The position numbers and the translations under genes are program-made. Positions 7,935 through 33,847 of a stretch of DNA of 64,000 nucleotides are shown here, one piece after another. Source of the DNA: [Pseudopropionibacterium] massiliense (lineage in GTDB: Bacteria > Actinomycetota > Actinomycetes > Propionibacteriales > Propionibacteriaceae); assembly GCF_900607225.1 (NCBI RefSeq), contig NZ_LR027842.1:3405458-3469457 (forward strand). The letters are read 5' to 3'. The stretch's first letter is position 1, and every line of letters begins with the position of its first letter. Under the pieces are notes generated by a model that saw only the letters and a list, made by a program, of their open reading frames with translations, was not told the origin of the DNA and ran no database searches.

Positions 7935-8071
7935 GGTTCCCCTCGGGTCGTCGTGGTGCCGGTCCAGTGTAGATGGGGTTTCAAGATGTGGTCAGTGAAT
8001 CGCGATTACCTCTGGTGCGGTTTCGCGACGAAGATCTAGTATTGGTCGCCAAGGAGTCAGGAAGGAATCGA

Positions 8072-19162: not shown

Positions 19163-20338
19163 ATGAGTGCTGACGCCAGGCGGGCCCGGTGGGGTGTTGT
19201 CATGCTGTTCTGGTTGAACGGGGTGGCGTGGTCGTCGATCCTGCCCAGGTATCCCGAGATCAAGGAGGCCCTGAGGCTCGACGACCAGTGGTGGGGTGCT
19301 GCGGTGGCGATCGGACCCGTCGGCGGTCTGGCCGCGGGCCTGGTGACGGCCGCGCTGATCCGGCGGTACTCGTCGGCGTGGGTGTCGGTGATCTCGCAGG
19401 TGGTGGGGATCGCCATGCTGAACCTCATCGGCAACGCCCCCGCGGCCTGGGTGTTCGTGGTGGGGGTGTTCCTGATGGCGAGTCTCGACGCGCTGACCGA
19501 CATCTCGATGAACGCCCACGGGCTGCGCGTCCAGGAGCTCTACGGCCGCCCGATCCTCAACAGCTTCCACGGCTGGTGGTCCATCGGCGCGGTGTGCGGG
19601 GGCTTCATCGGGTCCGCCGCCCGGCAGGCTGGGATTCCCGTCTGGGTGCAGTGCCTCGCCGCGACGGTGGTGTTCGGCGGGATGTCGCTGGGGGCGAAGG
19701 CCCTGCTGCTGCCCGGCCTGGACCACGAGCCGCAGGCCGAATGGAGCCGGCAGCAGCGACGGCGGCGCCTCCCCGCGGGGATCGTCGTGCGACTCGCGGC
19801 GCTCGGGCTGCTCGGGGCCTCGGCCGGGTTGATGGAGGACACCGGGTCGACCTGGGGCGCGATCTACCTGGACCGGCAGTTCGACGTCATCCCGTTCGTG
19901 GCGGGCATGGCCTTCGTCGGGTTGCAGGGTGCGCAGCTGGTCGGCCGGTTCACCGGCGATGCCCTGGTCTCGCGGATCGGGCCCCGGTTCGCCGTCGTTC
20001 AGGGCGCCATCATCGCTTTTCTCGGCATGGGGTGGTCGCTGGTCTGGCCTTCTCCGGTCACCGCGATTCTGGGCTTCGCCTGCGTCGGCTGGGGTGTCGC
20101 GACGGCGATCCCGTCGACCATGCACGCCGCCGACGAGCTGCCCGACATGAACCACGGCGACGGGCTGATGATCGTCACCTGGATGATGCGGATCGGGTTC
20201 TTCGCGGGTCCTCCGTTGATCGGTGCGCTGTCGGAGGCCACGGACCTGCGGCTGGCGCTGTGGGTGGTGCCGGCCTTCGCGGTCGTGATCCTGGTGTTGA
20301 GCCCGTCGTTGGGCCGGAGTGCCGGTGGGAGACGATGA
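19163..20338 (+). CDS. MFS transporter (YbjJ-like)
   Basis: A 391-residue integral membrane protein with 12 predicted helices in two halves, split by an Arg-rich loop near 190-200 (SRQQRRRRLPAG). It is similar in layout to YbjJ-type MFS proteins of unknown substrate. The conserved LNSFHGWWSIGAVCGGFIGS stretch in helix 5 is typical of that subfamily. It is divergent from deoA, suggesting nucleoside or sugar transport, but that is inference. The region after the start lacks a strong ribosome site. Confidence 0.82.
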   Translation: MSADARRARWGVVMLFWLNGVAWSSILPRYPEIKEALRLDDQWWGAAVAIGPVGGLAAGLVTAALIRRYSSAWVSVISQVVGIAMLNLIGNAPAAWVFVVGVFLMASLDALTDISMNAHGLRVQELYGRPILNSFHGWWSIGAVCGGFIGSAARQAGIPVWVQCLAATVVFGGMSLGAKALLLPGLDHEPQAEWSRQQRRRRLPAGIVVRLAALGLLGASAGLMEDTGSTWGAIYLDRQFDVIPFVAGMAFVGLQGAQLVGRFTGDALVSRIGPRFAVVQGAIIAFLGMGWSLVWPSPVTAILGFACVGWGVATAIPSTMHAADELPDMNHGDGLMIVTWMMRIGFFAGPPLIGALSEATDLRLALWVVPAFAVVILVLSPSLGRSAGGRR

Positions 20339-20510
20339 TGACGTGCCGGCGAATCCCTCGGCGGTCCGTGGATTCGGGCGGCTACCGGTTTGGATGTACT
20401 TAAGTCGGTCTTCCCGTCAACTGAAGATGGCCTCTTGTCGCCGTTTCTTCCACGCTGCGGACCCCTGTGCCATGCTCGGGATGAGCATGCGGGTGAGAGG
20501 CGGTGTGGAA

Positions 20511-21002
20511 ATGAGCCATGGTCCCGAGCTGATGCCGGAACTTCCCAGAAGACTTCCGCGGCAGGCGCTCGTGGTGTGGCGACTGGGTGTTCTTGCGAGT
20601 GCCTTCCTGCTTGTGCTCCTGATACTCGTGGCCGGGTGGCTCTGGCCCCGACAACGATTCCTGGAAATCGTGACATGGCCCGCGCTCGGCGTCATACTCG
20701 TGTCAACATTTCTTGATGTGGTGGTTCTGTTGGGGCTGCGTCACAAATATTACCGGTACGAGACCGATTCCTCGGGACTCCGGATCAGTAGAGGATACAT
20801 GTTTGCTCGATACATCAGCATTCCCGCGTCCCAGATCCTCTATGTCGACGTTCGACAGGGCCCGCTCGCACGCGCGCTCGGTCTCAGCACCTTGGAGGTC
20901 GGTACTCTCGGGACAACGCACGATCTGGGGCCGCTGGAGTCGGCCAGGGCCAGCGAAATAGTGCAGCAATTCGGTGTCGGAGCGCGGCATGCGGCGCAAT
21001 GA
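20511..21002 (+). CDS. YdbS-like PH-domain membrane protein (bacteriocin locus)
   Basis: A 163-residue protein with two N-terminal transmembrane helices (about 30-50 and 60-80) followed by one bacterial PH (bPH2) domain with the typical RYETDSSGLRISRGYMF and IPASQILYVDVRQGPLARAL strands. This is the layout of YdbS. The ATG at 20511 is preceded by GAGAGGCGG. It overlaps the start of the larger YdbT-like gene by 29 bp, so the two are coupled. YdbS/YdbT pairs occur in aureocin A53-type leaderless bacteriocin clusters (my recollection), where they are linked to immunity or export. Confidence 0.8.
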   Translation: MSHGPELMPELPRRLPRQALVVWRLGVLASAFLLVLLILVAGWLWPRQRFLEIVTWPALGVILVSTFLDVVVLLGLRHKYYRYETDSSGLRISRGYMFARYISIPASQILYVDVRQGPLARALGLSTLEVGTLGTTHDLGPLESARASEIVQQFGVGARHAAQ

Positions 21003-22386
21003 TCCACGCATGCTGGTCTTGACGACCTACCGGGCCATGGTGGTCTATGTGCCCTTCATGCTGATCCAGGGAAGCGTCGGTGCGGCGCTACCGGGCTGGG
21101 CGGCTTTCCTGTGGATGATGCTGGTGGTGTACTATTCCGTGACCCGGCTTGAGGTGATATTCACCAAATATCTCACGACCTTCTGGCACGCGGATGGTGC
21201 GGGGATCCGATTTCGTACCGGTTGGCCGGTTCGGGAGGAGACCCATCTCTCCTGGGCCGAGGTGGGTAGTCTCGAGGTGCACCAGGGGTGGATGGCGAGA
21301 CTGCTGTGCGTATCGCAGGTAACCGCCTCCGTGGGTGCCGAGAATCGTCGAAGTCTGGTTCTCGATGCGCTCTCCAGGGCGGAAACAGAAAGATTGTTGA
21401 GCCTGCATGACGTTTCTCCTGCGGGAGATGAGGAGGGAGGATGCGTCGCAATCGAGGAATCCGGCGAAGAGATCTATCGCGCTCGTCCGCGTGATTATTT
21501 TTTGATCGGATTCACGCATGGTAAGTTCTTTCTCTTCGTGCCATTCCTGCTCGGAACCGGATCCGACCTCCTCGAATATGTTGGAGTGGATCTGTTTGGA
21601 CTTCAGGTCACGTGGGAACTCGTGATCGTCGCTGTCGTGGCAGCGGGGGCGTATGGTGTGGTGCGGGCGTTGGTCACCTATGGCCGCTACCGTGTGATCA
21701 GGGTTCCTTCAGGTTTCAAGACGAAGGGCGGCATCGTGCAGCGCACGACCTTCGAGGCGCGGGCGACGGAGGTGGTGGGAATCCGAATTGATCGGAATCC
21801 CTTGATGCAGTTGACGGGATACTGCTCGGTGAACCTCATCCTGGCCACTGGGAGAAGGGATCTCGAGGCTCTTCCAATACTTCCGGTGATCGCGTATGGC
21901 AGAGCATTTGACGAGGTGAAAAACCTCATTCCGGTTCACTGCGAGCAACGATCTCCCTGGGCCGGGAAACTGCCGTTCACGGTTCTTGCCGGTGGTGTCG
22001 GGGTGGCGGTTGTGTTCGCGTGGGCCTCGAACCTGTGGCTGGCGGGACTCGCCCTCGCCGGTGCCCTGTCGGCGGCCAACTCACTGGTGGCCAGGGTGGG
22101 ACGTGGTGACGGGGTCGTTCTCGTGGAGAGGGGATTGCTGGGGCGCAGCCTGCGGGTGATCGATGAACAGATGGTTCGCAGCGTTTCCGCGTTTCAGCGG
22201 GTGTGGCCGACCCCGTCGTCCACCGTGTTGATGTCGTTCACGGTGCTCGATCGCCGGAAGTTGAGGTTGCACATTCCTGGGGTTCCGGTGACCCTTGCGC
22301 GAATGTTGATGGCCGTCCCGCGGTCAGTGTCGGTTGCCGGACAGCGATGTCGGCGGCTGGGGTATGACGGCGATCGTTTTCCATAG
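20974..22386 (+). CDS. YdbT-like tandem PH-domain membrane protein (bacteriocin locus)
   Basis: A 470-residue membrane protein with paired helices at about 20-60, 170-235 and 325-370, alternating with bPH2 domains (for example YRVIRVPSGFKTKGGIVQRT). This is the repeat design and length of YdbT. The GTG at 20974 overlaps the upstream YdbS-like gene; an in-frame ATG at 20989 is the alternative. Its 3' end overlaps the convergent histidine kinase gene by 63 bp. With YdbS it probably forms a membrane complex; protection from or export of the peptide at 23891 is inferred from context. Confidence 0.8.
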   Translation: MSERGMRRNDPRMLVLTTYRAMVVYVPFMLIQGSVGAALPGWAAFLWMMLVVYYSVTRLEVIFTKYLTTFWHADGAGIRFRTGWPVREETHLSWAEVGSLEVHQGWMARLLCVSQVTASVGAENRRSLVLDALSRAETERLLSLHDVSPAGDEEGGCVAIEESGEEIYRARPRDYFLIGFTHGKFFLFVPFLLGTGSDLLEYVGVDLFGLQVTWELVIVAVVAAGAYGVVRALVTYGRYRVIRVPSGFKTKGGIVQRTTFEARATEVVGIRIDRNPLMQLTGYCSVNLILATGRRDLEALPILPVIAYGRAFDEVKNLIPVHCEQRSPWAGKLPFTVLAGGVGVAVVFAWASNLWLAGLALAGALSAANSLVARVGRGDGVVLVERGLLGRSLRVIDEQMVRSVSAFQRVWPTPSSTVLMSFTVLDRRKLRLHIPGVPVTLARMLMAVPRSVSVAGQRCRRLGYDGDRFP

Positions 22387-23463
22387 GCCATCGTTTCTGT
22401 CAACCTCGAACGATCCTCGTAACTGTCGAATCCTCTCCTGTACTCCGAGCAGTCCAAGTCGACCCTTGTTCTCTTTCTTGCCCGAATCGGGATTCACGTA
22501 CTCTGCTATCAGGTCACCCTGGTTTTCACGAAGAATTATCGACACGCTGCTTCGGGGAGGACTGTGCTTTATCATATTGGTCACGGCCTCGTGGGTGATC
22601 TTTGACAATGTGACGGCGCGGGTGGGGGTGATGTTCTTTATGTCAATGGTGACCTCGGGTAAGAAACCTGCTTTTTCGAGGCGATTGACTTCCCGTCTGG
22701 TTTCCGCCGCCAACGTGATGACGTCGTTCGGCTGTTTCCGGTTGTCGACGGAACTCGACGTGCGCAGCGATGAGATCAGGCTTCTGAGATCATACGCGGA
22801 GGTGCTGCAGTCAAAGGCGATCCTCTCCAGGTCGTCGCGTATTTCCTCCGGAAGGTCTGGATGAGTCAGTGCAAGATGTGCTCGCATGGCTGTGTGGGAC
22901 AGCGTCTGCGCCACGGTGTCGTGCAGCTCACGAGCCATTTCGAATCGATAGGAGGTCAGTTTCTGACGCCCGAGCTCCTCGGCGGCCGCGACGCGTTCCT
23001 CACCGCTTCGCAAGAGCACCGCCCCGCCCACGGCTATCGTTGATCCCATCAACAGGGATGCCACATCGATCGCTATTTCCGAGGGACGCGGTGTCTCCAT
23101 CGCGACCCCGACCATGATGATGATCCAGATCGTCATCCACCACGTGGCATGGTTGATGCGCAAACGAATTATCGTGAAAACATGGATCAACAGAGCTGCC
23201 GCGCCAACGCTCATGCCCTCGGTTGGAACGTACAGCCCGAGGAGGGTCAGGCATGTGGTGAGGGCTGCGGATTGCAAGACGAATCGTTTCGCGAAGGCCG
23301 CGCTCAGGAACGGAAGTGCATTGACGAGCCAATACGTGGTGTTGCCCGACTCGACAAGGGCGAAGACGGTTGTCAGGGCCAAGGCAAGTGCTGCAAGCAG
23401 TGGCTCCGACCAGTCACTCCTCAGCGTGCGCGAGGTCGGCGTCATGTTGTCGATCCGTGACAT
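22324..23463 (-). CDS. sensor histidine kinase (HisKA_3, NarL-type partner)
   Basis: A 379-residue membrane kinase with about five to six N-terminal helices (20-165) that sense a membrane or extracellular signal. A HisKA_3 dimerisation domain follows, with the phosphoacceptor in ELHDTVAQTLSH (His near 200). The C-terminal HATPase_c domain has HEAVTNMIKHSP and GRLGLLGVQERI. It pairs with the NarL-type regulator at 24218, with the bacteriocin-like peptide gene between them on the opposite strand. Sensing of the peptide or of membrane damage is the likely input, by analogy only. Confidence 0.88.
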   Translation of the reverse strand: MSRIDNMTPTSRTLRSDWSEPLLAALALALTTVFALVESGNTTYWLVNALPFLSAAFAKRFVLQSAALTTCLTLLGLYVPTEGMSVGAAALLIHVFTIIRLRINHATWWMTIWIIIMVGVAMETPRPSEIAIDVASLLMGSTIAVGGAVLLRSGEERVAAAEELGRQKLTSYRFEMARELHDTVAQTLSHTAMRAHLALTHPDLPEEIRDDLERIAFDCSTSAYDLRSLISSLRTSSSVDNRKQPNDVITLAAETRREVNRLEKAGFLPEVTIDIKNITPTRAVTLSKITHEAVTNMIKHSPPRSSVSIILRENQGDLIAEYVNPDSGKKENKGRLGLLGVQERIRQLRGSFEVDRNDGLWKTIAVIPQPPTSLSGNRH

Positions 23464-23890
23464 GCGCCTCAGTATAGAGTGTGCGATGTTGTATGCACAG
23501 GGAAACGGATCGGTTCTGTTGCGGTGGTCGCGAGTCTGGTGAAGGGGTGCGCGCCGGCCATACGATTGAAATTTTCATCGATGTTCTTCCCTGCTTCGGT
23601 GCTCCCTTGGCCGGGTGTTCGCGGAATTAGTTTTGCTGCTTAATATAATATCGGGGATACGGTGGATCATGTGAAGGTTGGTGTGCGGAACATCCCGCGC
23701 TGCACATGCACCGCGGGTGGTGGCTCCGATACCAAAGTTGATCGTGTTATCCGCCAAGGTAGCTTGTTGTGGCACGAAGGTTGGTGATCAAGCGGCAGGG
23801 TCTTCCCGTTCAGTTCGAAACAGGATGTACTGGTGGTGGCTCCGCGGAAGCTTGGAAATCAATCACGGTAACTCAAGAAGGGATTGCATC
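23464..23890. other. 427-bp leader region of the bacteriocin-like gene
   Basis: Between the divergent kinase gene and the peptide gene. It has an A+T-rich promoter-like patch near 23625-23650 with TATAAT at 23644-23649 but no convincing -35. A 12-bp direct repeat GGTGGTGGCTCC occurs twice, near 23716 and 23832. The long untranslated leader and weak -35 fit activation by the adjacent response regulator. Any other small gene here lacks support. Confidence 0.4.
23644..23649 (+). promoter_or_regulatory. candidate -10 box for the bacteriocin-like gene
   Basis: A perfect TATAAT lies in the only A+T-rich patch upstream of the peptide gene. The hexamer 17 bp upstream (GCGGAA) is not a good -35, suggesting dependence on an activator such as the NarL-type regulator at 24218. 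The transcript leader would be about 240 nt. Confidence 0.35.
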
Positions 23891-24049
23891 ATGGCTCTTT
23901 TCTCCCGTCTCGTTTCCTACGCTTGGAACTTCGGAAGGCAGATTGTCAACTGGCTCTGGGCACACAGGAATGTCATCCTCGGCTGGCTTCGTAATGGGTT
24001 GGCCTTCGATGTGATCATCGACAAGGTTCGCAGGTACTTGGGGATCTGA
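23891..24049 (+). CDS. candidate leaderless bacteriocin, aureocin A53/lacticin Q-like
   Basis: A 52-residue peptide with no leader or signal sequence, starting MALFSRLVSYAWNFGRQIVN and ending DVIIDKVRRYLGI. It has four Trp (12, 21, 23, 32), seven Arg/Lys against two Asp (net about +5), and alternating amphipathic helices. Lacticin Q (53 residues) and aureocin A53 (51) share the size, MA-start, aromatic-Gly turn, Q-V-W segment, ILxWL motif, a D-x4-K stretch and a C-terminal LGI/L-type end. It has a good ribosome site (AAGAAGGG). The neighbours are PH-domain proteins, a two-component system and an ABC transporter. No leader-processing gene is present or needed. Membrane-active antibacterial function is inferred, not shown. 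Confidence 0.8.
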   Translation: MALFSRLVSYAWNFGRQIVNWLWAHRNVILGWLRNGLAFDVIIDKVRRYLGI

Positions 24050-24067
24050 TCGACTTTCCTGATGCAT

Positions 24068-24110
24068 CGCGTGGGTGTGGTGCCAATGGGAGTGGCACCA
24101 CACCCACGCG
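24068..24110 (+). terminator. strong terminator hairpin after the bacteriocin-like gene
   Basis: Two perfect 18-bp arms, CGCGTGGGTGTGGTGCCA and its complement, enclose a 7-nt loop (ATGGGAG). They start 18 bp after the stop codon, so the peptide gene is probably a monocistronic transcript. No T-run follows. Confidence 0.75.
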
Positions 24111-24217
24111 ACCGTGGCGGCGGGAGGGATCTCCTGACGTCAACGGGATGGCTACCGTAGCATGTGAGTGATCCTCCACCGAGAGGAAGCGGGTGTGGCC
24201 ACTCCGTCTGGAATATT

Positions 24218-24850
24218 TCAGTCGATGAGGTTCCACTCGTAGGCAAGCGCAGCCAGGGCAGTTCGATTGGGCCGGCCGAATTTTTCCAGCAGCCTGCTGA
24301 CGTAGGACTTCACCGTGCTCACCGCCAGGTGGGTTTGGGCGGCGATCTCTGCGTTGCTCCTGCCCTTGCCTATCAGGACTATGAACTCGCGGTCCCGGGT
24401 GCTGAGGTCCGGAGGGGCGGTGCTGCGACGCAGCATGGGCAGCAGGGCGGTGATGAGCTTCGGGGAGACGAGGGTGTCCCCGCTGTAAGCCGCGAGGACC
24501 CCGTTGACCACCATGTGGGGGTGGTCGGATTTCAGGAGAAAACCGGTGGCCCCCGCCTCCAGGGCCTTGATCATCGTCGTCTCGTCGGCCATGGCGGTGA
24601 AGATGAGCACCCGGCACATCAGCCCTTCGGCGAGTACGCGTCTGGTGACCTCGATCCCGTCGAGCTGAGGCATGATCAGATCAGTGATGAGGACATCCGG
24701 CTGCAGCTCCTGTGTGACCTGCAATGCCTGTCTGCCGTCATGCGCGATCCCGACCACCTCGATGGAGTGGGCCCCCGACAGATACCGTTGCAGGGCGGTG
24801 ACGGCGAAGTGATCGTCCTCGGCGATGACCACCCGGATGTGTGTTTCCAT
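24218..24850 (-). CDS. NarL/FixJ-family response regulator
   Basis: A 210-residue regulator. The receiver domain (1-120) has IAEDDH at the N-terminus and the phosphoacceptor Asp in DVLITDLIMPQLDG. The C-terminal LuxR-type helix-turn-helix (about 145-205) contains LSTRDREFIVLIGKGRSNAE and STVKSYVSRLLEKF. The start is the ATG before ETHIRVVIAEDD. It pairs with the HisKA_3 kinase at 22324 and lies upstream of the ABC transporter operon on the opposite side of the peptide gene. It probably controls the peptide and transporter genes. Confidence 0.9.
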   Translation of the reverse strand: METHIRVVIAEDDHFAVTALQRYLSGAHSIEVVGIAHDGRQALQVTQELQPDVLITDLIMPQLDGIEVTRRVLAEGLMCRVLIFTAMADETTMIKALEAGATGFLLKSDHPHMVVNGVLAAYSGDTLVSPKLITALLPMLRRSTAPPDLSTRDREFIVLIGKGRSNAEIAAQTHLAVSTVKSYVSRLLEKFGRPNRTALAALAYEWNLID

Positions 24851-24909
24851 TCTGCAATGGTAGGGCTGCGGGTTGGGTTGTGTGTCGATGTTTGAAACCT
24901 CCTCGGAGT

Positions 24910-25683
24910 TTAGCGGTAGATGCGGCCGCGGCGCAGGGCGATGGGAGCCGATGCCGTCACAACGGCGCACCAGAGGATCAGCAGGAGACCCGCTAGCAGC
25001 GGCGTCACCCTCGTCGCCAGTTCGGAACCGGTCAGGGTGGCCGCATTCATGAGGGAGGACGGAAGATAGGAGAAGATCGGGGTGTCAAGACCCGCGGTTG
25101 TGAGAGCGGTCTCCAGGGCGGGCACACCAACCACCACGATCAGGACGGTACCCACCGAAAGCGCCGGCTTGGGAAGCCACCAGGCCGCAACCAGCGCCAG
25201 GATGCCCCAGGTGAGATGGACGGCGAACGTACCCAGAACATTGATCCAGAGGACGGGTGAGGCCAGTGTCGCCAGGACGAGGGAGGCCGGCAGGAGTGAG
25301 AAGCAGAGCGCGACTGCCGCCCCCGTCGTGATGACGGTGGTCAGCAGGGATGCCGTTGAGATCACGATGAGCTTGGCGCGGAGGATCCGGCCGTTGCTCA
25401 TGGCCATGTGGATGTGATTGATCGTGCCCGAGGACCAGTCGGCGGTCACCAGGGTCGTCGCCCAGAATGCCAGCAGCAGGCCGGAGAAGAACGTCGGGCT
25501 TCCCGGCATGAAGGCGACGGCCTCGATTTGTGACGCGTGCGTTGCCCCTTCCTCCAAGGCCTTCTGGACGGCCGAGGAACTGAATGCGACGGCGGCCAGG
25601 GTGGCCAGCAGGATGAGGAGCCACACCCAGTAGGTGATTCGGTAGGCCTTGGAACGGACCAGCTCCGCACGGACATCCCTCAT
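24910..25683 (-). CDS. ABC-2 type transporter permease (bacteriocin locus)
   Basis: A 257-residue membrane protein with six predicted helices (first at about 17-35), the size and layout of ABC-2 permeases of the immunity/export type (LnqEF- or AucFG-like in function, not in clear sequence). Its start overlaps the stop of the ATPase gene by four bases. With that ATPase it likely exports the peptide or removes it from the membrane, giving self-protection. It is followed 60 bp on by the regulator gene. Confidence 0.85.
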   Translation of the reverse strand: MRDVRAELVRSKAYRITYWVWLLILLATLAAVAFSSSAVQKALEEGATHASQIEAVAFMPGSPTFFSGLLLAFWATTLVTADWSSGTINHIHMAMSNGRILRAKLIVISTASLLTTVITTGAAVALCFSLLPASLVLATLASPVLWINVLGTFAVHLTWGILALVAAWWLPKPALSVGTVLIVVVGVPALETALTTAGLDTPIFSYLPSSLMNAATLTGSELATRVTPLLAGLLLILWCAVVTASAPIALRRGRIYR

Positions 25684-26606
25684 GACTCTTCCTTCCTGGC
25701 GGCGATGAGATCACCGCGATACTCCACGTGATCGGCGGTCAGTTCCTGGAATCTTTTCTCGAGGCTGATCGTCTCCTGCTCCATGTGGGTCAGCGCAACC
25801 TCGGCGGCCAAGGCGATTTGCCCGATGGCCTCCGGTTCGAGCGAGATCCGCAGCAACCCATTTCCCGTCACGTCCACCGTGGCGCCGGCCCGGCGGCAGG
25901 CCTCCGACAGAACGGTGGGGTCGGTGGCCGAGACCAGGGTCGCGGGGTTCGCCAGCCGGGTGAGCTCGGACATGGTTGCCTGGCTGATGATCTCGCCCTT
26001 CCCGATGACCACCACCCGGTCAGCCGTCTGGGCCATCTCCGAGAGCAGATGCGACGACATCAACACCGCTGTGCCATCGGCGGACAACATCCTGACCAGG
26101 TTGCGCACCCACGTCACCCCATCCGGGTCGAGACCGTTGACCGGCTCGTCGAGAACCACGTTGCCGGGGTCGGTGAGAAGTGCTGCTGCGATGCCAAGAC
26201 GTTGCTTCATACCGAGGGAGAACGTGCCCGCTCGACGCTTGGAAACGGCGTGCAGACCGGTCAGTTCGAGAATCTCGTCCACACGCGAACGTGGTACGTC
26301 CTGCATCAGTGCGAGTGCCCTCAGGTGATCGTGTGCCGTGCGACTGGGATGCACCCAGCCGGCATCGAGCAGCACGCCGAGGTTCGTCCGTGCCGCACCG
26401 CGGGGAAGGGGCGTGCCGTCGATGATGATCTGCCCGCCGTCTGGCTGGTCGAGTCCGGCCACGATGCGCAGCAACGTTGTCTTGCCGGCGCCGTTGGGAC
26501 CGACGAAACCCGTCACCGCACCGGCGGGTACCTCGAAGGACACTTCCCGTAGAACCTGGTGCTCCCCGAATCGACGGGTCACCCGCGATATCTCGATCAA
26601 GATCAT
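25680..26606 (-). CDS. ABC transporter ATP-binding protein (bacteriocin locus)
   Basis: A roughly 308-residue ATPase of the ABC-2 drug/bacteriocin-immunity type. Walker A is GPNGAGKTT, the signature is SLGMKQR (a variant of LSGGQ), Walker B is NVVLDEPVNGLDP, and the H-loop is SSHLL. A C-terminal extension of about 85 residues is common in this subfamily. The start is uncertain: ATGs at 26615 and 26606 lie at or beside GAGAGGG, and a TTG at 26600 has the best spacing to it. It overlaps the permease start, so the two are one transporter operon. Confidence 0.88.
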   Translation of the reverse strand: MILIEISRVTRRFGEHQVLREVSFEVPAGAVTGFVGPNGAGKTTLLRIVAGLDQPDGGQIIIDGTPLPRGAARTNLGVLLDAGWVHPSRTAHDHLRALALMQDVPRSRVDEILELTGLHAVSKRRAGTFSLGMKQRLGIAAALLTDPGNVVLDEPVNGLDPDGVTWVRNLVRMLSADGTAVLMSSHLLSEMAQTADRVVVIGKGEIISQATMSELTRLANPATLVSATDPTVLSEACRRAGATVDVTGNGLLRISLEPEAIGQIALAAEVALTHMEQETISLEKRFQELTADHVEYRGDLIAARKEES

Positions 26607-26893
26607 CCCTCTCATTCATGGCCGGTGGCCGTCACACTGCCATTCCACAAACCAAGGGACGTCGATATCGAGGAGTTCTGCGCGAAAGACGACCGTCGTC
26701 GGGTGAATTGCCTACTTTGGTACATCGGCGGAGGATTGATCGCAAGGTGTGCACGACACGATCCCCCCGACCGTCGAGGGCCGAGAGGACCGTGTCATCC
26801 GTCAGTTTGAGGTGTTCGCGTGTGGCGTTGCAGGGAAGGAAGCCGTGTCGATGACGTCACATCATCGCAGTGCAGGCGTTCCGTGACGCTGTT

Positions 26894-27106
26894 TCACGGT
26901 TTGCAGAAGAAGCGTGAAACATACGTGCAGAGCATGTCCTGGATGAAGCTGTACTCGCTCGAGGACCAGCCGCCAAGGTCGATTTCCATTGGCTGGGACT
27001 GGGCGGGCAGGGTTTCCGTGGCCTGCGCGACCGTGGGGGTTCCCACCACCAAGGTGCTGATGGCCAGGGTGGCTCCGATGGCGGCGGCGATCTTGCGCTT
27101 GAGCAT
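26894..27106 (-). CDS. small secreted two-cysteine peptide 1
   Basis: A 70-residue precursor. A Sec-type signal peptide (MLKRKIAAAIGATLAISTLV) ends at about residue 30 with an AQA-type cleavage site. The mature part of about 40 residues ends in a hydrophobic loop closed by two cysteines, MLCTYVSRFFCKP. A paralogue at 27283 has the same signal peptide, ribosome site (AAGGAGAAA) and C-terminal pattern [LF]C[TK]Y...FC[KR]. The cysteines likely form one disulfide ring. Bacteriocin, pheromone or toxin roles are all possible; none is established. It is next to the ABC transporter of the bacteriocin locus. Confidence 0.75.
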   Translation of the reverse strand: MLKRKIAAAIGATLAISTLVVGTPTVAQATETLPAQSQPMEIDLGGWSSSEYSFIQDMLCTYVSRFFCKP

Positions 27107-27282
27107 GTCTTTCTCCTTGGATTTCTCGTTGGTTGAGATGATTTTCATCCCTATGGGATTCGCGTCGACGGGATCGGTGATTGGTGGTTCCGGCGGTACT
27201 GGCCATGACACGTCCCGGTGACGGGTGGACCCGGAGCTTCGCCAAACCTGCGAGGTGCGCGAACGGGTCGTGTGAGAATCAG

Positions 27283-27483
27283 TCACTTACGGCAGAAGAT
27301 TCCCAGGTACTTGCAGAAGTAGAAGGAGAGTCCGCGGAATTCTTCTCCCGTCGAGGTGTGGTTGAGTTTCGGGTCCCAGCCTGGGTCCGCTCCATCATCC
27401 GCGTGTGCAGCTGCCGGGGTTCCGAGCAGGGTTGCCAAGGTCAGGGTGACTCCGGCGATGGCTGCGAGTTTGCGCTTGAGCAT
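27283..27483 (-). CDS. small secreted two-cysteine peptide 2
   Basis: A 66-residue precursor. The signal peptide MLKRKLAAIAGVTLTLATLL is cleaved after an AHA site near residue 28. The mature peptide ends in LSFYFCKYLGIFCRK. It parallels the 70-residue paralogue directly downstream on the same strand, so the pair arose by tandem duplication. The acidic N-terminal half contrasts with the basic hydrophobic ring. The ribosome site AAGGAGAAAA is identical in style. A sigma-70-like promoter (TTGACA-17-TCAAAT) precedes it. Function unknown. Confidence 0.75.
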   Translation of the reverse strand: MLKRKLAAIAGVTLTLATLLGTPAAAHADDGADPGWDPKLNHTSTGEEFRGLSFYFCKYLGIFCRK

Positions 27484-27513
27484 TTTTCTCCTTGGAGTTG
27501 AGTGGTGGAAGGA

Positions 27514-27542
27514 ATTTGATGTCAGATGATCTCTGATGTCAA
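27514..27542 (-). promoter_or_regulatory. promoter of the small secreted peptides
   Basis: On the minus strand, TTGACA (27537-27542) and TCAAAT (27514-27519) are separated by 17 bp, just upstream of the second peptide gene. The segment also contains repeated CTGAYRTC-type motifs (ATCTGACATC and GACATCAGAG), which may be an operator. Confidence 0.45.
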
Positions 27543-27604
27543 ATCCTTTTCTTTTCTTTATTCAGTTTTGTTTCTGATTTCCCGGTGCGGCGCGGGAAGG
27601 ACTG

Positions 27605-28696
27605 TCATTCGGCCTTGCGGAGGTGGGCGACGATGCCGTCGATGTCCTGCTGCAGGCGTTCGAGGCGGACGAAGTGGCCACCTTGTTCCTCGTAGCGTTC
27701 GTACTTGATTCCCGCCGAATCGAGTTTTTCTGCGAACTCGCGCTGGGTGTTGAGAACGGTGTCCTCGTTCAAGACGCTGAAGAGCTCCTGCAGCCCGGAC
27801 ACCTTGGCATGCCCTTCCCACACGGGCTTGAGTCGATCGGTGCCGGCGACGAGGAAGATGCGCTTGTTGCGGTAGCTCTCGAGGTTCTCGATGGGGTTAT
27901 CCGCGGTGATGAGATCTTGACGCCACTTGCTTTCCGGGGCTCCGTAGATGGTACCGCCGAGAAGCTCGAAGGCAGCCGAGGTGAAATTCGCCCAGCGCAC
28001 GATCACGTCGGTGAGTGGTTGACCGCTGAGCCGTATGCCGGTGCTCGTGGTGCGGAGGTTTGCTGGTCCGGAGTGGGCGCTGACGGAGGCGAATTTGTCG
28101 CTGTACTTGGCGGTGTATTTGAGGGCTCCGAAGCCTCCCATGGAGAATCCGGAGACGGCGCGTCCGGCTTGTTCGGGGAAGGTGCGGAAGGTGGCGTCGA
28201 CCCAGGGGATGAGTTCTTCGATGTGGAAGGTTTCCCAGTTGCGTGGGCCCACGTTGGAACTTACGGGGTTGCAGTGCCAGCCGAGTCCGGCGTCGGGCAT
28301 GACGACGATGAGGTCGCGTCCGGCGGTCATTTCTCGGATGTTGTATCCGTCGAATTCGGTGTATTGTCCGCCGCCTCCGTGGAATTGGTACAGCACGGGG
28401 TAGCGTTTGCCGCTGTCGTAGCCGTCGGGGAGCAGAACGTTGACACGCGGGTTCCGCAAGAGGCCCGGATTGAAGTCCTTCGATGTGAACGAGATTATTC
28501 TTCTTCTGATCGATGGAGTCGTGAACTCGTAGGTCTGCATGCGGCCGTCGGTTTCCTGGCTGACGACCTCCAGTCCGGCAGCGTGGGCGGGGGCTGCGGT
28601 ACCCAGTGCCGCTCCGGCGCCGAGAGCGGATGCCGCTGCAATCGCTCCGGTTCCCTTGAAGACGGTGCGGCGGCTGAGTTTGTGGTTCAAGGACAT
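27605..28696 (-). CDS. Tat-secreted esterase paralogue 1
   Basis: A 363-residue exported alpha/beta-hydrolase of the esterase D/antigen 85 family (PF00756 type). The N-terminus has a twin-arginine signal (LSRRTVFKGTG) and an AHA-type cleavage site near 40. The nucleophile lies in GFSMGGFGAL, and a C-terminal GGHFVR supplies the catalytic His. This is the largest paralogue of four here. It has an extra segment after the signal and after the nucleophile (FELLGGTIYGAPESKW). A 382-bp internal tract is identical to paralogue 3. The ATG follows AAGGGAGAGTC. Substrate unknown. Confidence 0.88.
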   Translation of the reverse strand: MSLNHKLSRRTVFKGTGAIAAASALGAGAALGTAAPAHAAGLEVVSQETDGRMQTYEFTTPSIRRRIISFTSKDFNPGLLRNPRVNVLLPDGYDSGKRYPVLYQFHGGGGQYTEFDGYNIREMTAGRDLIVVMPDAGLGWHCNPVSSNVGPRNWETFHIEELIPWVDATFRTFPEQAGRAVSGFSMGGFGALKYTAKYSDKFASVSAHSGPANLRTTSTGIRLSGQPLTDVIVRWANFTSAAFELLGGTIYGAPESKWRQDLITADNPIENLESYRNKRIFLVAGTDRLKPVWEGHAKVSGLQELFSVLNEDTVLNTQREFAEKLDSAGIKYERYEEQGGHFVRLERLQQDIDGIVAHLRKAE

Positions 28697-29036
28697 GACT
28701 CTCCCTTGTGGTTGAATTTCCATGGGGACAGGTGATTCCGATGTGGGTTGTTTCCCTCTGGAATCGATTCAGGAATGGTGTTTGACTTCACAACAGACGT
28801 GGTCAACCCGGCGTCTTGGATGGTCTGTCCAACCTCCGCTCCCGTGGAGTTCGTTCGCGCTCCAGTTGAACGCAATCCTAGCTGGATACAACTGTGTATG
28901 CAACCCTTTCATCATGCGGAATTCTGATTGCTATTTCAAGGATTTTTCTGATTGAACGGCTTCCCCGGGGTCTCCATTCCTGTGGCTCGGGGACCCCGGT
29001 TCCGTTCGTGAAATCCCGTGCCTCCGGGGGTCGCGG
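28697..29036. other. 340-bp upstream region of esterase 1
   Basis: Holds the esterase 1 promoter at 28875-28903, a leader of about 165 nt, and the 3' flank of esterase 2. No small gene is supported. Confidence 0.4.
28875..28903 (-). promoter_or_regulatory. esterase promoter with internal operator, copy 1
   Basis: On the minus strand, TTGCAT and TAGGAT are 17 bp apart. The spacer contains the inverted repeat ATACA-N4-TGTAT (read on either strand). The same arrangement precedes esterases 2 and 3, so the three genes are likely under one repressor. Confidence 0.65.
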
Positions 29037-29987
29037 TCAGCCGGCCTTGCGGAGGTGGGCGATGACGCCGTCGATGTCCTGCTGGAGGCGTTCCCTGCGG
29101 ACGAAGTGGCCGCCCGGCTCCTCGTGGCGTTCGTAACGGATACCCGCTCCGTCCAGCGCGGCGGCGAATTCTCGCTGGGTGGGAAGCACGAAGTGTTCGT
29201 TCGCGTCGAAGTAGTCGGTGCCGGAGACGAGGAAGATGCGCTTGCCGCGGTAGCTCTCGATACGCTCCACGGGGTTGTCGGCGCTGACTCGGGCCTGGTC
29301 CCAGGGGATTCCGTAGACGGTGCCACCGCCCAGGTCGACGGTCGAGCTGGCGTTCGCCCAGTGGACGACCGCGCCGTTGATGCTCCGTATGCTGGCGGGT
29401 CCTGAGTGGCTGCTGACGGATGCGAAGTGGCCGTAGTACTTGGCGGTGTACTTGAGGGCGCCGAAGCCTCCCATGGAGAATCCGGAGACGGCGCGTCCGG
29501 CCTGTTCGGGGAAGGTGCGGAAGGTGGCGTCGACCCAGGGGATGAGTTCCTCGATGTGGAAGGTTTCCCAGTTGCGTGGCCCCAGGTTCGCGGTCACCGG
29601 GTTGCAGTACCACCCCGCGATTCCGCCGTCCGGCATGACCACGATGAGATCGCGTCCGGCGGTGAGCCCCCGGATGTCGTCCTCCCTGTCGAACTTCATG
29701 AAGTTCTGCGCCCCGCCGTGAAGCAGGTAGAGGACCGGGTAACGGCGGCCGCTGGCGTAGCTGTCGGGCAGGAGGACGTTGATTCGCGGATTCCATGCGA
29801 TCGACGGGGTGGAGACCTTGTAGTACTCCATCCGGCCATAGGTCTGGTGCTCGATGACGTTCAAGCCCGCCGCGTGTGCGGGGGTGTTGACCGCCAGGGC
29901 GGTTCCGGCGCCCAGGACGGATGCGGCGGCGAGTCCCCCGGCTCCCCTGAAGACGCTGCGGCGACTGATACTGCGATCCAAAGACAC
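29037..29987 (-). CDS. Tat-secreted esterase paralogue 2
   Basis: A 316-residue exported alpha/beta-hydrolase of the same family as its three neighbours. The Tat signal is ISRRSVFRGAG, with the mature start near residue 40 after AHA. The nucleophile motif is GFSMGGFGAL, and the C-terminal His lies in PGGHFVRRERL. It starts at a GTG, seven residues before the signal arginines, in the same position as the paralogues, after AGGAAGC. Its GC-rich codon use contrasts with the more AT-tolerant copies 1 and 3, so it is an older or less recombined copy. Confidence 0.88.
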   Translation of the reverse strand: MSLDRSISRRSVFRGAGGLAAASVLGAGTALAVNTPAHAAGLNVIEHQTYGRMEYYKVSTPSIAWNPRINVLLPDSYASGRRYPVLYLLHGGAQNFMKFDREDDIRGLTAGRDLIVVMPDGGIAGWYCNPVTANLGPRNWETFHIEELIPWVDATFRTFPEQAGRAVSGFSMGGFGALKYTAKYYGHFASVSSHSGPASIRSINGAVVHWANASSTVDLGGGTVYGIPWDQARVSADNPVERIESYRGKRIFLVSGTDYFDANEHFVLPTQREFAAALDGAGIRYERHEEPGGHFVRRERLQQDIDGVIAHLRKAG

Positions 29988-30125
29988 GATGCTTCCTATT
30001 GATTGAAATTTCATCACGATATGGGGCACGAGACGACCACTGCCGATTCGTGCGAGTTCGGAATTGATGCCGGAGTGTTCTCCCGCTGGCCTTTCGGGAA
30101 TCCGACTCGGTGAAGCCTCCCTCGA

Positions 30126-30154
30126 ACCCTAACTGGATACAGGTTCGTATGCAA
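30126..30154 (-). promoter_or_regulatory. esterase promoter with internal operator, copy 2
   Basis: Minus-strand TTGCAT-17-TAGGGT with the same spacer palindrome (ATACG...TGTAT, one mismatch). It lies about 140 bp before the GTG of esterase 2. Confidence 0.62.
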
Positions 30155-30257
30155 CTCCTTGTGGGGAGGATTTTGCCGCTCACCTGGAGGTGATGTCGCG
30201 GCTCGGGGTGCGGCGCGGCCTCGACCACGAGAAATAGTCAAAGAATCAAGAAATACG

Positions 30258-30352
30258 AGAGCTTCTGCTCGGCCTTGTGGAAATGGGCAATGACGCCGTT
30301 GATGCCCTGCTGGAAGCGTTCCATACGGGCCGCGTGGTCGCCCTCCGGGTTC
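30258..30352 (-). pseudogene. esterase C-terminal remnant
   Basis: The minus strand reads RMERFQQGINGVIAHFHKAE, matching the last 20 or so residues of esterase 1 (RLERLQQDIDGIVAHLRKAE). The preceding TNPEGDHAA corresponds to the GGHFVR catalytic-His region. No upstream part of the gene remains; the YdcF gene now lies there. It is the tail of a fifth paralogue deleted or replaced during rearrangement. Confidence 0.7.
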
Positions 30353-30408
30353 GTCGGCATCCGTCCCCTCGACGCCGCCGCGGCGCGCAGGGGGTGAGGC
30401 GGTTCGCC

Positions 30409-31443
30409 TCAGGACAGCCAGGCGGCCAGTGACACCAGCAACGTCAATGGCACCGTCACCAGGGCCAGGCCCAGCCCGTAGGCCCTGGGTGACCTCCGCA
30501 CCACCGCCACGAACTCCCGCAACATCGCACTGGGCCAGTAATACCACGCGGTACGCGCCCCCAACACCTGAATACCCGTACCCAGGTCACGAGCCAACAA
30601 CGCAGCACGCATCGCATGATAGTTACTGGTGACCGCGATCCCCACAGCCCGCGGCCCCAGCCGCGGCTCGGCCAGGACCAGGTCCGTCGACATCCGAAAA
30701 TTCTCCCGGGTGGTCGTGGAACGGTCCTCCAACACCACAGCCGCTTCCGGAACACCCCGCCCCAACGCGTAGTCAGCCATCGCCCGGGCCTCACTGACGG
30801 GTTCATCAGGACCCTGCCCACCACTCATCACCAACAGTGGACGCCGCCCAGCATCGACCTCACCCCGCCACACCCCCAGCGCCCGGTCGATACGCCCGGC
30901 CAGCAGCGGGGTGACCCTCCCGGAAGGAACCCCGGCACCCAGCACCATGATGAAATCCGGATGAACCCTCCGAACGACACGCTGGTAGAACCAGGAATAC
31001 CCGACGAAACAGAAGAACATCAACGCCACCCAACCGGTGGTGATCATGATGAACGTCGGGACGGGAAAGGCCCGTCGTTCCCCGGTAAGAACCACAAAGA
31101 CACAAACAACCATTGCCGCAACCAGCCCGATACCGGCGAGCAGGGACAACGAGTGGGCCAGGGAGAAACGTTCCCTACACAGCATGACCACACCGTTGAG
31201 GACGAGGAAACCCGCCAAACCAATGGCCAACAGCGGCGACATGAGCACCAGGAAACCCAACCCCATCAATGGGGCCGAGAAACCGAGGACCGCCAACACC
31301 TGGATACCGAGCAGCAAGGTGACGGCGATCCACCCGGCATTGGCCAGGCGCCGCGGTTCCTGACGGATACGCCGCCACGTCACCCACCCCACAAACACCA
31401 AGACCACCAGCAGTATCAAACCGATCAGGACATTCGAATCCAC
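30409..31443 (-). CDS. YdcF/DUF218-family membrane protein
   Basis: A 344-residue protein with five or so N-terminal helices (1-165) followed by a DUF218 domain (about 170-320). That domain contains IMVLGAGVPSGRVTPLLAGR, LVMSGGQGPDE, AVVLEDRSTTTREN and VTSNYHAMRA, the standard motif series of YdcF/ElyC/SanA proteins. These are linked to cell-envelope polymer or lipid-carrier metabolism, but their exact reaction is not settled. The GTG start is at 31443. It interrupts the esterase array between the remnant and the alpha/beta-hydrolase. Confidence 0.85.
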   Translation of the reverse strand: MDSNVLIGLILLVVLVFVGWVTWRRIRQEPRRLANAGWIAVTLLLGIQVLAVLGFSAPLMGLGFLVLMSPLLAIGLAGFLVLNGVVMLCRERFSLAHSLSLLAGIGLVAAMVVCVFVVLTGERRAFPVPTFIMITTGWVALMFFCFVGYSWFYQRVVRRVHPDFIMVLGAGVPSGRVTPLLAGRIDRALGVWRGEVDAGRRPLLVMSGGQGPDEPVSEARAMADYALGRGVPEAAVVLEDRSTTTRENFRMSTDLVLAEPRLGPRAVGIAVTSNYHAMRAALLARDLGTGIQVLGARTAWYYWPSAMLREFVAVVRRSPRAYGLGLALVTVPLTLLVSLAAWLS

Positions 31444-31510
31444 ACCGGAACGATAACCCCGCCACCGGCATGAACATGTCGCTGTTCACCGACATCCCGA
31501 AGGGTGCGAG

Positions 31511-32287
31511 TCACCGGCTGGTGCTGTCGAAGGCCTCCTCGATGAAGGGATCGACCAGCCCGTGGTAGGTCTCCGGGGCGTCCCGCCGCACGCAGTGGCC
31601 GACGCCGTCGACCAGCACCAGGCGCACGAGCGGGTTGGTCACATCGGAGGGGTCAGGGGCCATGTCGCCGTGGCGGGGTGCGAGGTACAGCGTCGGTATC
31701 GTCAGCTGGTTGACCGCGCTGACGAGATCGGCCTCGCCGAGATAGGTGCCCTCGCGTATGAAGCGGCGGTCGACCTGCTCCTTGCACCGGGCCCACTCCT
31801 CGATCTCGGCATCACTCCATGAGGTCTCGCGCCGCATCCGCTCCCGCTCGGCCGCGCCACCATCGGCGACGAACGCATCCAGGAACCGCTCCTGGTGTTC
31901 CACGAACCAAGAGGCCGGGCCCCAGTGTCCGGTGGGACGCGCGACGTCCTCCAGGACCAGTGCCCGCACCTGGTCGGGCCGGGCCACGCCCACTCGCAGC
32001 GACATGAGCCCTCCCAGGCTGTGCGCCACGACGACCGGGGGCTCCGGGAGTGAGGAGAGCACCCGCTCGAGGTCTTCCTGCATGGTCTGCGGTGCCCGGT
32101 TCAGGGCTTCGTCGTCCCACCGTGGGGACATCCCGTGCCCCCGCAGGTCCACCGCGAGAACGTGATACTGGGAGGACCAGCCAGCCACGGCGTCGGGCCA
32201 GGCGGCAGCCGATTCCGTCAGGCCGTGTACCAGAAGCAGGGCCGGAGCCGCGGGATTCCCCCACTCGTGCAGTGCAAGCGTCGTCAC
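31511..32287 (-). CDS. alpha/beta hydrolase
   Basis: A 258-residue cytosolic hydrolase. The oxyanion HG motif is in LLVHGLTESAAAW, the nucleophile is Ser in VVAHSLGGL, Asp lies in the region after the cap, and the catalytic His is in VDGVGHCVRRDAP. It has no signal peptide and is unrelated to the esterase paralogues around it beyond the fold. The GTG start at 32287 is chosen where coding-like codons begin; no strong ribosome site is seen, so a nearby start is possible. Substrate unknown. Confidence 0.8.
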   Translation of the reverse strand: MTTLALHEWGNPAAPALLLVHGLTESAAAWPDAVAGWSSQYHVLAVDLRGHGMSPRWDDEALNRAPQTMQEDLERVLSSLPEPPVVVAHSLGGLMSLRVGVARPDQVRALVLEDVARPTGHWGPASWFVEHQERFLDAFVADGGAAERERMRRETSWSDAEIEEWARCKEQVDRRFIREGTYLGEADLVSAVNQLTIPTLYLAPRHGDMAPDPSDVTNPLVRLVLVDGVGHCVRRDAPETYHGLVDPFIEEAFDSTSR

Positions 32288-32496
32288 CTCGGTGACTGTA
32301 GTACTGGGGGTGTTCAAAGTCGCGGCAAGGTGCTGTGGTCCGGTTCCACCAGCTGCCCCGTCGTGCCGCTGGTCAGCGTCGCGCGACGGATCGACGCCGT
32401 CAAGCCGCCGGGGGGTCGGGTGAGAGCGGATGCGTCCGGACCCCCTCGGCCACGAGGAAGTCGAGGGGGTCCGGAGCCGTCTGGGTCGTGGGGCTC

Positions 32497-33537: not shown

Positions 33538-33699
33538 GATGTTTCCTAGTGATTGAGTTTTCACCCTGATGTGTGAGCGCGTTGTGGCGGAAATGCCGGG
33601 GCGCGGATCGGTGCTGGCGCGATCACCCTGACCTGGTGATCATCGCCGTCCCCGGTGGCCTTTCCGGGGATTCCTGGTCCTGGTTGAAGTTTCCCCCAA

Positions 33700-33728
33700 A
33701 CTCTAACTGGATGCAACTCTGTATGCAA
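33700..33728 (-). promoter_or_regulatory. esterase promoter with internal operator, copy 3
   Basis: Minus-strand TTGCAT-17-TAGAGT. The spacer carries GCATACAGAGTTGCATCC, the same half-sites as copies 1 and 2 with one change. It lies about 165 bp before the esterase 3 ATG, the same distance as in copy 1. Confidence 0.65.
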
Positions 33729-33847
33729 CCCTCTGGTGGCAATTTCCTTGTTGCGTCGTCACCCGAGGACGCCGGCGGGCGGGCACGACCCGACTCCTCG
33801 ACCGCTGCGGGTCGAGGAGCCGGGCCTGTTTCAGGATCTGGTGCCGA

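What the first reader, a model, noticed from the sequence alone, without database searches (positions are those of the whole stretch)
20511..26606. Candidate actinobacterial leaderless-bacteriocin locus with PH-domain pair, two-component system and ABC transporter
Seen: a 52-residue, leaderless, Trp-rich, basic peptide gene (23891-24049) with a strong ribosome site and an 18-bp terminator stem, inside a block of YdbS/YdbT-like genes, a HisKA_3 kinase, a NarL regulator and an ABC-2 transporter. Known: lacticin Q and aureocin A53 are leaderless Trp-rich bacteriocins of 51-53 residues; ABC and PH-domain proteins appear in such loci (recalled, not checked). Inferred: this is a regulated homologue in a propionibacterial relative; control by a two-component system would be unusual for the class.
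Basis: partly seen in the sequence, partly recalled or inferred. Interest (0 to 1): 0.93.

Follow-up and report, generated by a model that had tools for sequence, protein, structure and literature searches.

The report
Bacteriocin locus inside a peptide-sensing cassette
This stretch of a propionibacterium-type genome encodes a small peptide of the known aureocin A53/lacticin Q antibacterial family, likely a near relative of the published arachnicin, and it lies inside a two-component sensor cassette that likely switches it on and whose relatives are predicted to listen to tiny cysteine-tailed signal peptides.

Summary
The 52-residue peptide (23891-24049) passes the curated cut-offs of Pfam PF11758 and NCBIfam NF033881, is 20/52 identical to lacticin Q, and its predicted four-helix fold matches epidermicin, lacticin Q and aureocin A53. 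The bacteriocin type is not new: a 2024 paper (PMC11580447) synthesised arachnicin, an active 52-residue aureocin-like peptide from Arachnia, and judged its cluster likely non-functional because regulator and transporter lie on the opposite strand.

Comparison adds something new. In Propionibacteriaceae such peptides travel with PH and ABC genes (7 of 7 loci) and mostly with this two-component system (5 of 7); the opposite-strand layout is the rule (5 of 5). The kinase family occurs in 20 of 198 genomes; in 17 of 21 loci a short ORF with a C-x5-8-C tail precedes it (3 of 72 control kinases), a candidate peptide pheromone. A DNA element (CCnAAAGTTGATCG) recurs at near-constant distance before these ORFs and once before the window's bacteriocin (23729-23744).

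In the window no such ORF precedes the kinase; the bacteriocin, inverted, occupies the slot. I infer a peptide-sensing circuit redirected to bacteriocin control. Signal, binding and regulation are untested.

The parts
20511..21002 (+). PH1: YdbS-like bPH_2 membrane protein, 163 aa, 2 predicted TM stretches (DdE/LnqC-type role inferred)
   Evidence: Pfam bPH_2 30.7 bits vs cut-off 22; hydropathy; same layout as YdbS/DdE in PMC8657885 (passages)
20989..22386 (+). PH2: YdbT-like bPH_2 membrane protein, 465 aa, 6 predicted TM stretches (DdF/LnqD-type role inferred)
   Evidence: Pfam bPH_2 52.9 bits, 2 stretches; hydropathy
22324..23463 (-). HK: HisKA_3 sensor kinase, 379 aa, 5 predicted TM stretches before the kinase core
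   Evidence: Pfam HisKA_3 47.8 bits; family alignment A1 with invariant His181 and Asn296; hydropathy
23729..23744 (+). candidate response-regulator site (ATACCAAAGTTGATCG), 146 bp before the bacteriocin ATG and pointing at it
   Evidence: top match of the leave-one-out matrix within the 20 kb around it; full matrix 22.1 bits vs 11.8 for the next best in the 64-kb window; spacing
23891..24049 (+). BAC: 52-residue leaderless bacteriocin of the aureocin A53 family, arachnicin-like
24067..24111 (+). 19-bp hairpin after the bacteriocin gene (likely terminator or mRNA 3' stabiliser)
24218..24850 (-). RR: NarL-type response regulator, 210 aa
   Evidence: Response_reg 81.4 bits, GerE 41.6 bits; Asp12, Asp13 and Asp57 present
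24910..25683 (-). PERM: ABC-2-like permease, 257 aa, 7 predicted TM stretches
   Evidence: weak NCBIfam PmtD match; homologues near the bacteriocin in four relatives; hydropathy
25680..26615 (-). ATP: ABC ATPase, 311 aa
   Evidence: ABC_tran 100.1 bits; best NCBIfam match TIGR03740 lantibiotic-protection ATPase, below its cut-off
26894..27106 (-). pepA: 70-aa peptide with Sec-like N-terminus and Cys tail (CTYVSRFFCKP); link to the circuit is speculative
   Evidence: also at the same site in G143 without the kinase family or bacteriocin
27283..27483 (-). pepB: 66-aa peptide with Sec-like N-terminus and Cys tail (CKYLGIFCRK); link to the circuit is speculative

Best explanation
Window 23891-24049 encodes a 52-residue peptide of the aureocin A53/lacticin Q family of leaderless bacteriocins, likely exported and tolerated with the help of the neighbouring PH-domain pair and ABC transporter, and likely switched on by the flanking HisKA_3/NarL two-component system through a predicted operator at 23729-23744. 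Shown here: family membership, predicted fold, linkage of PH, ABC, kinase and regulator genes with such peptides across Propionibacteriaceae, and recurrence of the DNA element in the regulator-kinase control region. Inferred: the kinase family is a peptide sensor, because most members are preceded by a short Cys-tailed propeptide gene whose upstream region carries the same element (a positive-feedback layout). In this locus the bacteriocin gene, on the opposite strand, lies where relatives keep that propeptide, and the element faces the bacteriocin. The signal for this kinase is unknown: the bacteriocin itself, one of the two secreted Cys-tailed peptides at 26894-27483, or another molecule.
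Against: The window's kinase has no Cys-tailed ORF before it and sits on a long branch (1.66) outside the other bacteriocin-linked kinases. At one mismatch the element is not special in the whole genome: 15 matches vs 9 for the reversed control. Exact matches in the family number 26 (24 of 198 genomes) vs 8 control; 19 of the 178 genomes without the kinase family have one too, and only 4 matches lie in kinase control regions. The Cys-tail motif was set after the first peptides had been seen; of the 17, two (L165, L167) are near copies and one (L157) is a 25-aa piece of a broken-looking frame. The site search began by eye, the matrix was trained on chosen sites, and target intervals were drawn after hits had been seen; 6 of 14 held-out loci fail. 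In G040 both copies face the propeptide, none BAC. No TAnnnT lies at the expected place before the window's bacteriocin. G050 has peptide, PH and ABC genes without this kinase family. Fold matches have Foldseek E 0.02-0.12 and a Z that the tool calls middling for small helical bundles. No expression, binding or activity data.
Confidence: 0.68

Rival explanations
1. The two-component system and ABC transporter form an ordinary stress or immunity module (LiaRS/VraSR- or lantibiotic-protection-like) that senses membrane damage and induces the ABC genes; the bacteriocin is expressed independently.
For: In the window RR, PERM and ATP are co-directional and closely spaced; the ATPase's best NCBIfam match is the lantibiotic-protection ATPase TIGR03740, although below its cut-off; the kinase shows weak NCBIfam similarity to LiaS (20.2 bits vs cut-off 450).
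Against: In four of the five loci with kinase and regulator the ABC genes sit with the PH genes and bacteriocin on the other strand. In the 11 non-bacteriocin genus loci no homologue of this permease was found; L042 and L040 have another ABC ATPase (32 and 26% identical) near the kinase. The DNA element lies before the bacteriocin and the propeptide-kinase genes; no match above 9 bits lies before the window's ABC operon.
Confidence: 0.2
2. The cluster is a decayed, non-functional remnant, as PMC11580447 suggested for arachnicin because the regulator and transporter lie on the opposite strand.
For: Genes are on both strands; the window lacks the ~90-aa membrane protein found near PH1 in four relatives; the kinase branch is long; no pheromone ORF. 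In G087 the bacteriocin frame has no standard start codon and in G170 only part of the peptide is recognisable, so some relatives may be decayed.
Against: All seven genes of the window are open frames and six of seven carry their Pfam domain; HK keeps His181 and Asn296, RR Asp57. The opposite-strand arrangement is the rule in 5 of 5 loci across three genera. The peptide is retained at 83% identity in P0003. Synthetic arachnicin was active (PMC11580447, parts 1-4 of 6 read).
Confidence: 0.1
3. The Cys-tailed short ORFs are themselves small antimicrobial or otherwise secreted peptides, not signals, and the kinase family senses something else.
For: They are short with paired cysteines; pepA/pepB with similar tails occur in G143 (likely A. 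propionica) without the kinase family.
Against: The coupling to one kinase family (17 of 21 vs 3 of 72), overlap or near overlap with the kinase start, and the shared upstream element at near-constant spacing fit a signal-receptor pair better.
Confidence: 0.25

Closest known systems
Arachnicin (PMC11580447; parts 1-4 of 6 of the text, figure legends and passages read; supplements not seen)
   Same: 52 aa, aureocin A53-like, Arachnia, Trp21 and Trp32, two Asp; 38.46% to lacticin Q in print and 20/52 = 38.46% here; regulator and transporter on the strand opposite to the peptide. The same paper notes a response regulator, PH protein and ABC system in the Brevilactibacter (Propionibacteriaceae) cluster.
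   Different: Published pI 12.12 and GRAVY 0.41 fit P0003 (12.12; 0.415), which is 83% identical to the window peptide (11.86; 0.377). P0003's ungapped identity to lacticin Q is 19/52 and its mass gives 15.82 uM at 100 ug/ml, not the printed 38.46% and 15.9 uM, so its identity with arachnicin is likely, not proven. The paper counts four cluster genes and its main text names no kinase.
Lacticin Q / aureocin A53 / epidermicin NI01
   Same: Sequence family, length and four-helix fold; YdbS/YdbT-like pair in the lacticin Q and aureocin A53 loci (PMC8657885 passages).
   Different: Lacticin Q is controlled by the TetR-family LnqR, and PMC6131525 (passages) finds no common mechanism for leaderless bacteriocins (kinase and regulator genes are noted there near some circular bacteriocins); here a two-component system is linked.
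Enterocin DD14 DdE/DdF (PMC8657885, passages)
   Same: Two adjacent bPH2 membrane proteins with 2 and 6 TM stretches; needed there for bacteriocin export.
   Different: Two-peptide bacteriocin of Bacillota; function here is by analogy only.
ComQXPA of Bacillus subtilis (PMC4008528, abstract and passages)
   Same: In relatives: short propeptide gene beside a multi-TM HisKA_3 kinase and a NarL-type regulator (domain types of ComP/ComA recalled).
   Different: Tail is Cys-x5-8-Cys; gene order RR-peptide-kinase; ComQ-like enzyme not looked for; the 2014 census found none outside Firmicutes; the window has no propeptide before its kinase.

Membership tests
Aureocin A53-like leaderless bacteriocins (PF11758 / NF033881) | Score above the curated family cut-off | tested here: met
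   35.2 vs 25 bits; 48.7 vs 27 bits
Aureocin A53-like leaderless bacteriocins (PF11758 / NF033881) | No leader: translation start at the mature N-terminus | tested here: met
   End-to-end alignment with lacticin Q from residue 1; ribosome-site-like stretch directly before the ATG. The start was not tested by experiment.
Aureocin A53-like leaderless bacteriocins (PF11758 / NF033881) | Four-helix compact fold | tested here: met
   Predicted model pLDDT 92.3; TM 0.75-0.90 to 6sif, 2n8p, 2n8o, Foldseek E 0.02-0.12
Aureocin A53-like leaderless bacteriocins (PF11758 / NF033881) | PH-domain pair and ABC transporter in the locus (common, not universal, in the class by PMC11580447) | tested here: met
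   the permease rests on weak similarity and synteny
Aureocin A53-like leaderless bacteriocins (PF11758 / NF033881) | Antibacterial activity | not testable with these tools
   Only the relative arachnicin has published activity (PMC11580447)
Peptide-pheromone two-component system (ComXPA-like layout) | Polytopic sensor kinase with NarL-type partner | tested here: met
   HisKA_3 with 5 predicted TM stretches; Response_reg + GerE
Peptide-pheromone two-component system (ComXPA-like layout) | Short propeptide gene directly before the kinase | tested here: not met
   Not found in the window; found in 17 of 21 family loci, the window being one of the four misses
Peptide-pheromone two-component system (ComXPA-like layout) | Regulator site in the promoters of signal and target genes | tested here: inconclusive
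   Candidate element found and partly validated on held-out loci; binding unknown
Peptide-pheromone two-component system (ComXPA-like layout) | Peptide-modifying enzyme (ComQ-like) | not tested
   No dedicated search made

The most novel reading that the evidence does not exclude
Propionibacteriaceae use an undescribed peptide-pheromone system: Cys-tailed propeptides (tail like YC-x3-P-W-L-C) sensed by an adjacent HisKA_3 kinase and NarL-type regulator that fires through a CCnAAAGTTGATCG operator. It has been coupled more than once to leaderless bacteriocin operons nested between regulator and kinase. In this Arachnia locus the bacteriocin has taken the pheromone's place and may act as its own inducer.
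Probability: 0.4. Interest if true: 0.8.

Novelty: new variant of a known kind. Interest (0 to 1): 0.58.

Why it matters
How leaderless bacteriocins, which are active as soon as they are translated, are kept silent until needed is open; the 2018 review read in passages here says no common regulatory mechanism exists (PMC6131525). A linked peptide-sensing two-component system with a defined operator would give a testable answer in Actinomycetota. It would also add a peptide-pheromone class outside Firmicutes, to which the comQXPA census was confined, and would argue that arachnicin-type clusters are working systems rather than remnants.

Tried and rejected
pepA/pepB as the obvious pheromones of this locus: rejected as established, because G143 (likely A. 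propionica) keeps both beside the esterases without the kinase family or bacteriocin. They stay possible, since G087 has a Sec-type Cys-tailed peptide directly before a related kinase (L168).

Window peptide = arachnicin itself: rejected, since pI and GRAVY differ; P0003 fits better, with small mismatches.

A wide regulon of the element: not supported. A clade of bacteriocin-linked kinases: not found. W stands alone, L029 pairs with L164 (97/91), and L031/L033/L034 group (99/97); for the regulator W and L029 fall in a clade of nine genus regulators (99/98), four other genus regulators outside it, and L031/L033/L034 group (83/80). L035 and L032 were not in the kinase tree (internal stop; no kinase). 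The L034 regulator row is cut short by a broken frame.

Rfam: no match in 20000-28000. The ~90-aa membrane protein near PH1 in four relatives has no Pfam match over its cut-off (three of four tested) and no convincing match in the window. A genome-contig scan with the single peptide found nothing; the scan with the kinase alignment gave the best 80 of 435 loci, five of them close. A first run of the Cys-tail scan read minus-strand loci the wrong way and was replaced (then 56).

Rows dropped: 3 of 14 pattern hits were left out of the matrix because they lie outside control regions; L167 was left out of the held-out test as a near copy of L165; 3 of 75 control loci were skipped for short upstream sequence; P0006 was not printed. 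L163 (tail CDLFPWLGVC plus nine residues) counts as a miss in 17 of 21. A wrong start for the L040 propeptide was corrected (122 nt, not 128).

Literature: in the listings and passages that I saw from searches (open-licence PMC papers only; most listed papers not opened) I found no pheromone of this kind and no kinase reported in an aureocin-like leaderless locus; a response regulator is reported for Brevilactibacter in PMC11580447.
Full report
What is there. The finding's anatomy is correct. PH1 (20511-21002 +) and PH2 (20989-22386 +) are bPH_2 proteins with 2 and 6 predicted TM stretches. HK (22324-23463 -) is a HisKA_3 kinase, BAC (23891-24049 +) the 52-residue peptide, RR (24218-24850 -) a NarL-type regulator, and PERM/ATP (24910-26615 -) an ABC pair. 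A 19-bp hairpin follows BAC. BAC is low in G+C (0.53) and HK is 0.58 against 0.65 for the window.

Already in print. PMC11580447 (parts 1-4 of 6, legends and passages read) mined 757 such peptides, 97 in Actinomycetota, and synthesised arachnicin from an Arachnia MAG, active on L. lactis HP at 100 ug/ml. Its printed pI and GRAVY fit P0003. So the window peptide is likely an arachnicin orthologue, not a new class. The paper thought the Arachnia operon likely non-functional because regulator and transporter lie on the opposite strand, while allowing that this could be a form of regulation; it names a 'putative regulatory protein' there, a response regulator in Brevilactibacter, and no kinase.

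Comparison across the family. NF033881 rings in 7 of 197 Propionibacteriaceae genomes, in 3 of 39 of the genus and in 3 of 394 drawn from the class, the window's own included, one below the cut-off. All seven family loci have a PH protein and an ABC ATPase; five have kinase and regulator (window, G095, G040, G087, G185). G050 has only a more distant regulator. G170 has a partial peptide match (positions 21-48), no two-component genes beside it, and its kinase 1.7 Mb away on the contig. G087's bacteriocin frame has no ATG/GTG/TTG at the expected start. By matching contig lengths, G095 is Tessaracoccus sp. OH4464_COT-324, G040 Micropruina glycogenica and G087 an uncultured Micropruina. In all five full loci BAC lies on the strand opposite to RR and HK, and RR and HK are co-directional with RR first; in four BAC lies between them, and in G095 a PH pair does. 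In the four relatives BAC, PH and ABC form one run on the opposite strand; in the window they are split around HK and RR. The opposite-strand layout is therefore the rule, which weakens the remnant reading.

The kinase family. A profile of 15 kinases finds it in 20 of 198 genomes at E 1e-60. In 11 of 11 genus loci without the bacteriocin, RR precedes HK on the same strand. Looking before the kinases, I found short ORFs ending in C-x5-8-C. Test, with the motif set after that look: 17 of 21 loci of the family, 3 of 72 distant HisKA_3 loci, shuffles 1.6 on average and 5 at most of 21. Misses: the window, G182, G082, and G196 (longer tail). Two of the 17 are near copies (L165, L167) and one is a 25-aa piece (L157). 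A protein search with nine such peptides plus pepA and pepB returned 46 proteins; 17 are pepA/pepB types, and the 28 others printed keep a two-Cys tail by eye. Four of the peptide genes show dN below dS in all six pairs (0.21-0.38 vs 0.40-1.46), so that group consists of real genes. I read them as propeptides of a signal; this is inference.

The DNA element. Reading frames before these genes suggested a shared DNA word. A one-mismatch search over the window and 19 related loci gave 14 hits, 11 of them in RR/BAC-HK control regions. A matrix from those 11 was tested: in 14 loci not used for it, the best match of the locus fell in the control region in 8, against 0.85 expected (P 7e-8; 6 of 12, P 4.6e-6, without L037 and L168, where the match overlaps the peptide ORF). 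Caveats: sites were first seen by eye, and intervals were drawn by hand after hits were seen. Misses: L032, L035, L036, L042, L045, L166. The nearest element lies 109-122 nt before the propeptide start in 9 of 10 loci (72 in L165), with TAnnnT 37-43 nt before the start in 8 of those 9 (L040 corrected). In G087 two elements face the two ways, one to the propeptide-kinase and one to BAC; weak copies face BAC in G095 and G185; in G040 both copies face the propeptide. In the window one element faces BAC at 146 nt; no TAnnnT follows at the usual place, only a TACTGG seen by eye. G050, without the kinase family, has no match above 10 bits there; G170, with the kinase elsewhere, has a weaker copy (14.5 bits) upstream of its partial peptide match.

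Limits of the element. In the window's genome one-mismatch matches number 15 vs 9 for the reversed control. In 198 genomes exact matches number 26 vs 8 control; 21 of the 26 are in genomes without the kinase family; of the 5 in kinase-bearing genomes 4 lie in the kinase control region. It is a local element, not proof of a regulon.

History of the site. In G143 (likely A. propionica) the left flank is 87 and 90% identical, the site holds a divergent PH pair (30-36%) but no BAC, HK, RR or ABC match, and pepA/pepB follow as in the window. The block 22.3-26.6 kb is thus a strain- or species-specific gain or loss. The regulator tree puts the window and G095 in a clade of nine genus regulators (99/98) and groups the Micropruina/G185 ones apart (83/80), so the coupling probably arose or was reshuffled more than once.

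Mechanism proposed. The signal (unknown here; in relatives the Cys-tailed peptide) activates HK; RR binds the element and raises BAC transcription, in relatives also that of the propeptide and kinase. The PH pair, needed for export of enterocin DD14 (PMC8657885, passages), and the ABC pair export the peptide and protect the cell. Shown: parts, linkage, element, predicted fold. Inferred: sensing, binding, export, immunity. Most daring: BAC sits in the pheromone slot and may induce itself.

Verdict. Observation confirmed and reading supported; the peptide type is known, the regulatory setting is a new variant. Interest 0.58.

Noticed in passing
window 26894-27106 (-) and 27283-27483 (-): Two small peptides with Sec-like N-termini and paired-Cys tails (CTYVSRFFCKP, CKYLGIFCRK); pepB is 86% conserved in G143 (likely A. 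propionica); 17 of 46 proteins found are of these types.
   Followed up: partly
window 27605-34800 (-): Tandem array of related esterase genes (PF00756 in the one tested, with a TAT-signal match below cut-off) next to pepA/pepB, with several paralogues and fragments; also arrayed in G143.
   Followed up: no
L168 (G087:C30), 66-228 nt before the kinase: A Sec-type precursor ending AIPWLCRMFGLCCER directly before a distant member of the kinase family.
   Followed up: partly
L042 8442-8684 (-): 80-aa membrane-type peptide plus ABC ATPase (7642-8370) and 473-aa protein just downstream of the kinase: a possible further peptide exporter unit under the same cassette.
   Followed up: no
L064 11024-12737 (G143, likely A. 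propionica): At the syntenic site a divergent PH-domain pair (30-36% to the window's) without bacteriocin, kinase or ABC: possible immunity-only allele.
   Followed up: partly
window 23716-23728 and 23832-23844: Exact 13-bp direct repeat GGTGGTGGCTCCG, 116 bp apart, in the bacteriocin control region; another 11-bp pair GAAGGTTGGTG at 23673 and 23776.
   Followed up: no
L030 9526-9800 (G170): Only a C-terminal part of an aureocin-like peptide is recognisable beside PH and ABC genes, with a weaker copy of the DNA element upstream.
   Followed up: partly
L033 7405-7557 (G087): The aureocin-like frame has no ATG, GTG or TTG before a stop 27 nt upstream of the conserved part: unusual start, assembly error or decay.
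   Followed up: no
L037-L045, beside the RR-peptide-HK cassette: In several non-bacteriocin genus genomes the cassette lies next to what looks like a suf operon (by gene sizes and order, recalled; not tested by profile).
   Followed up: no
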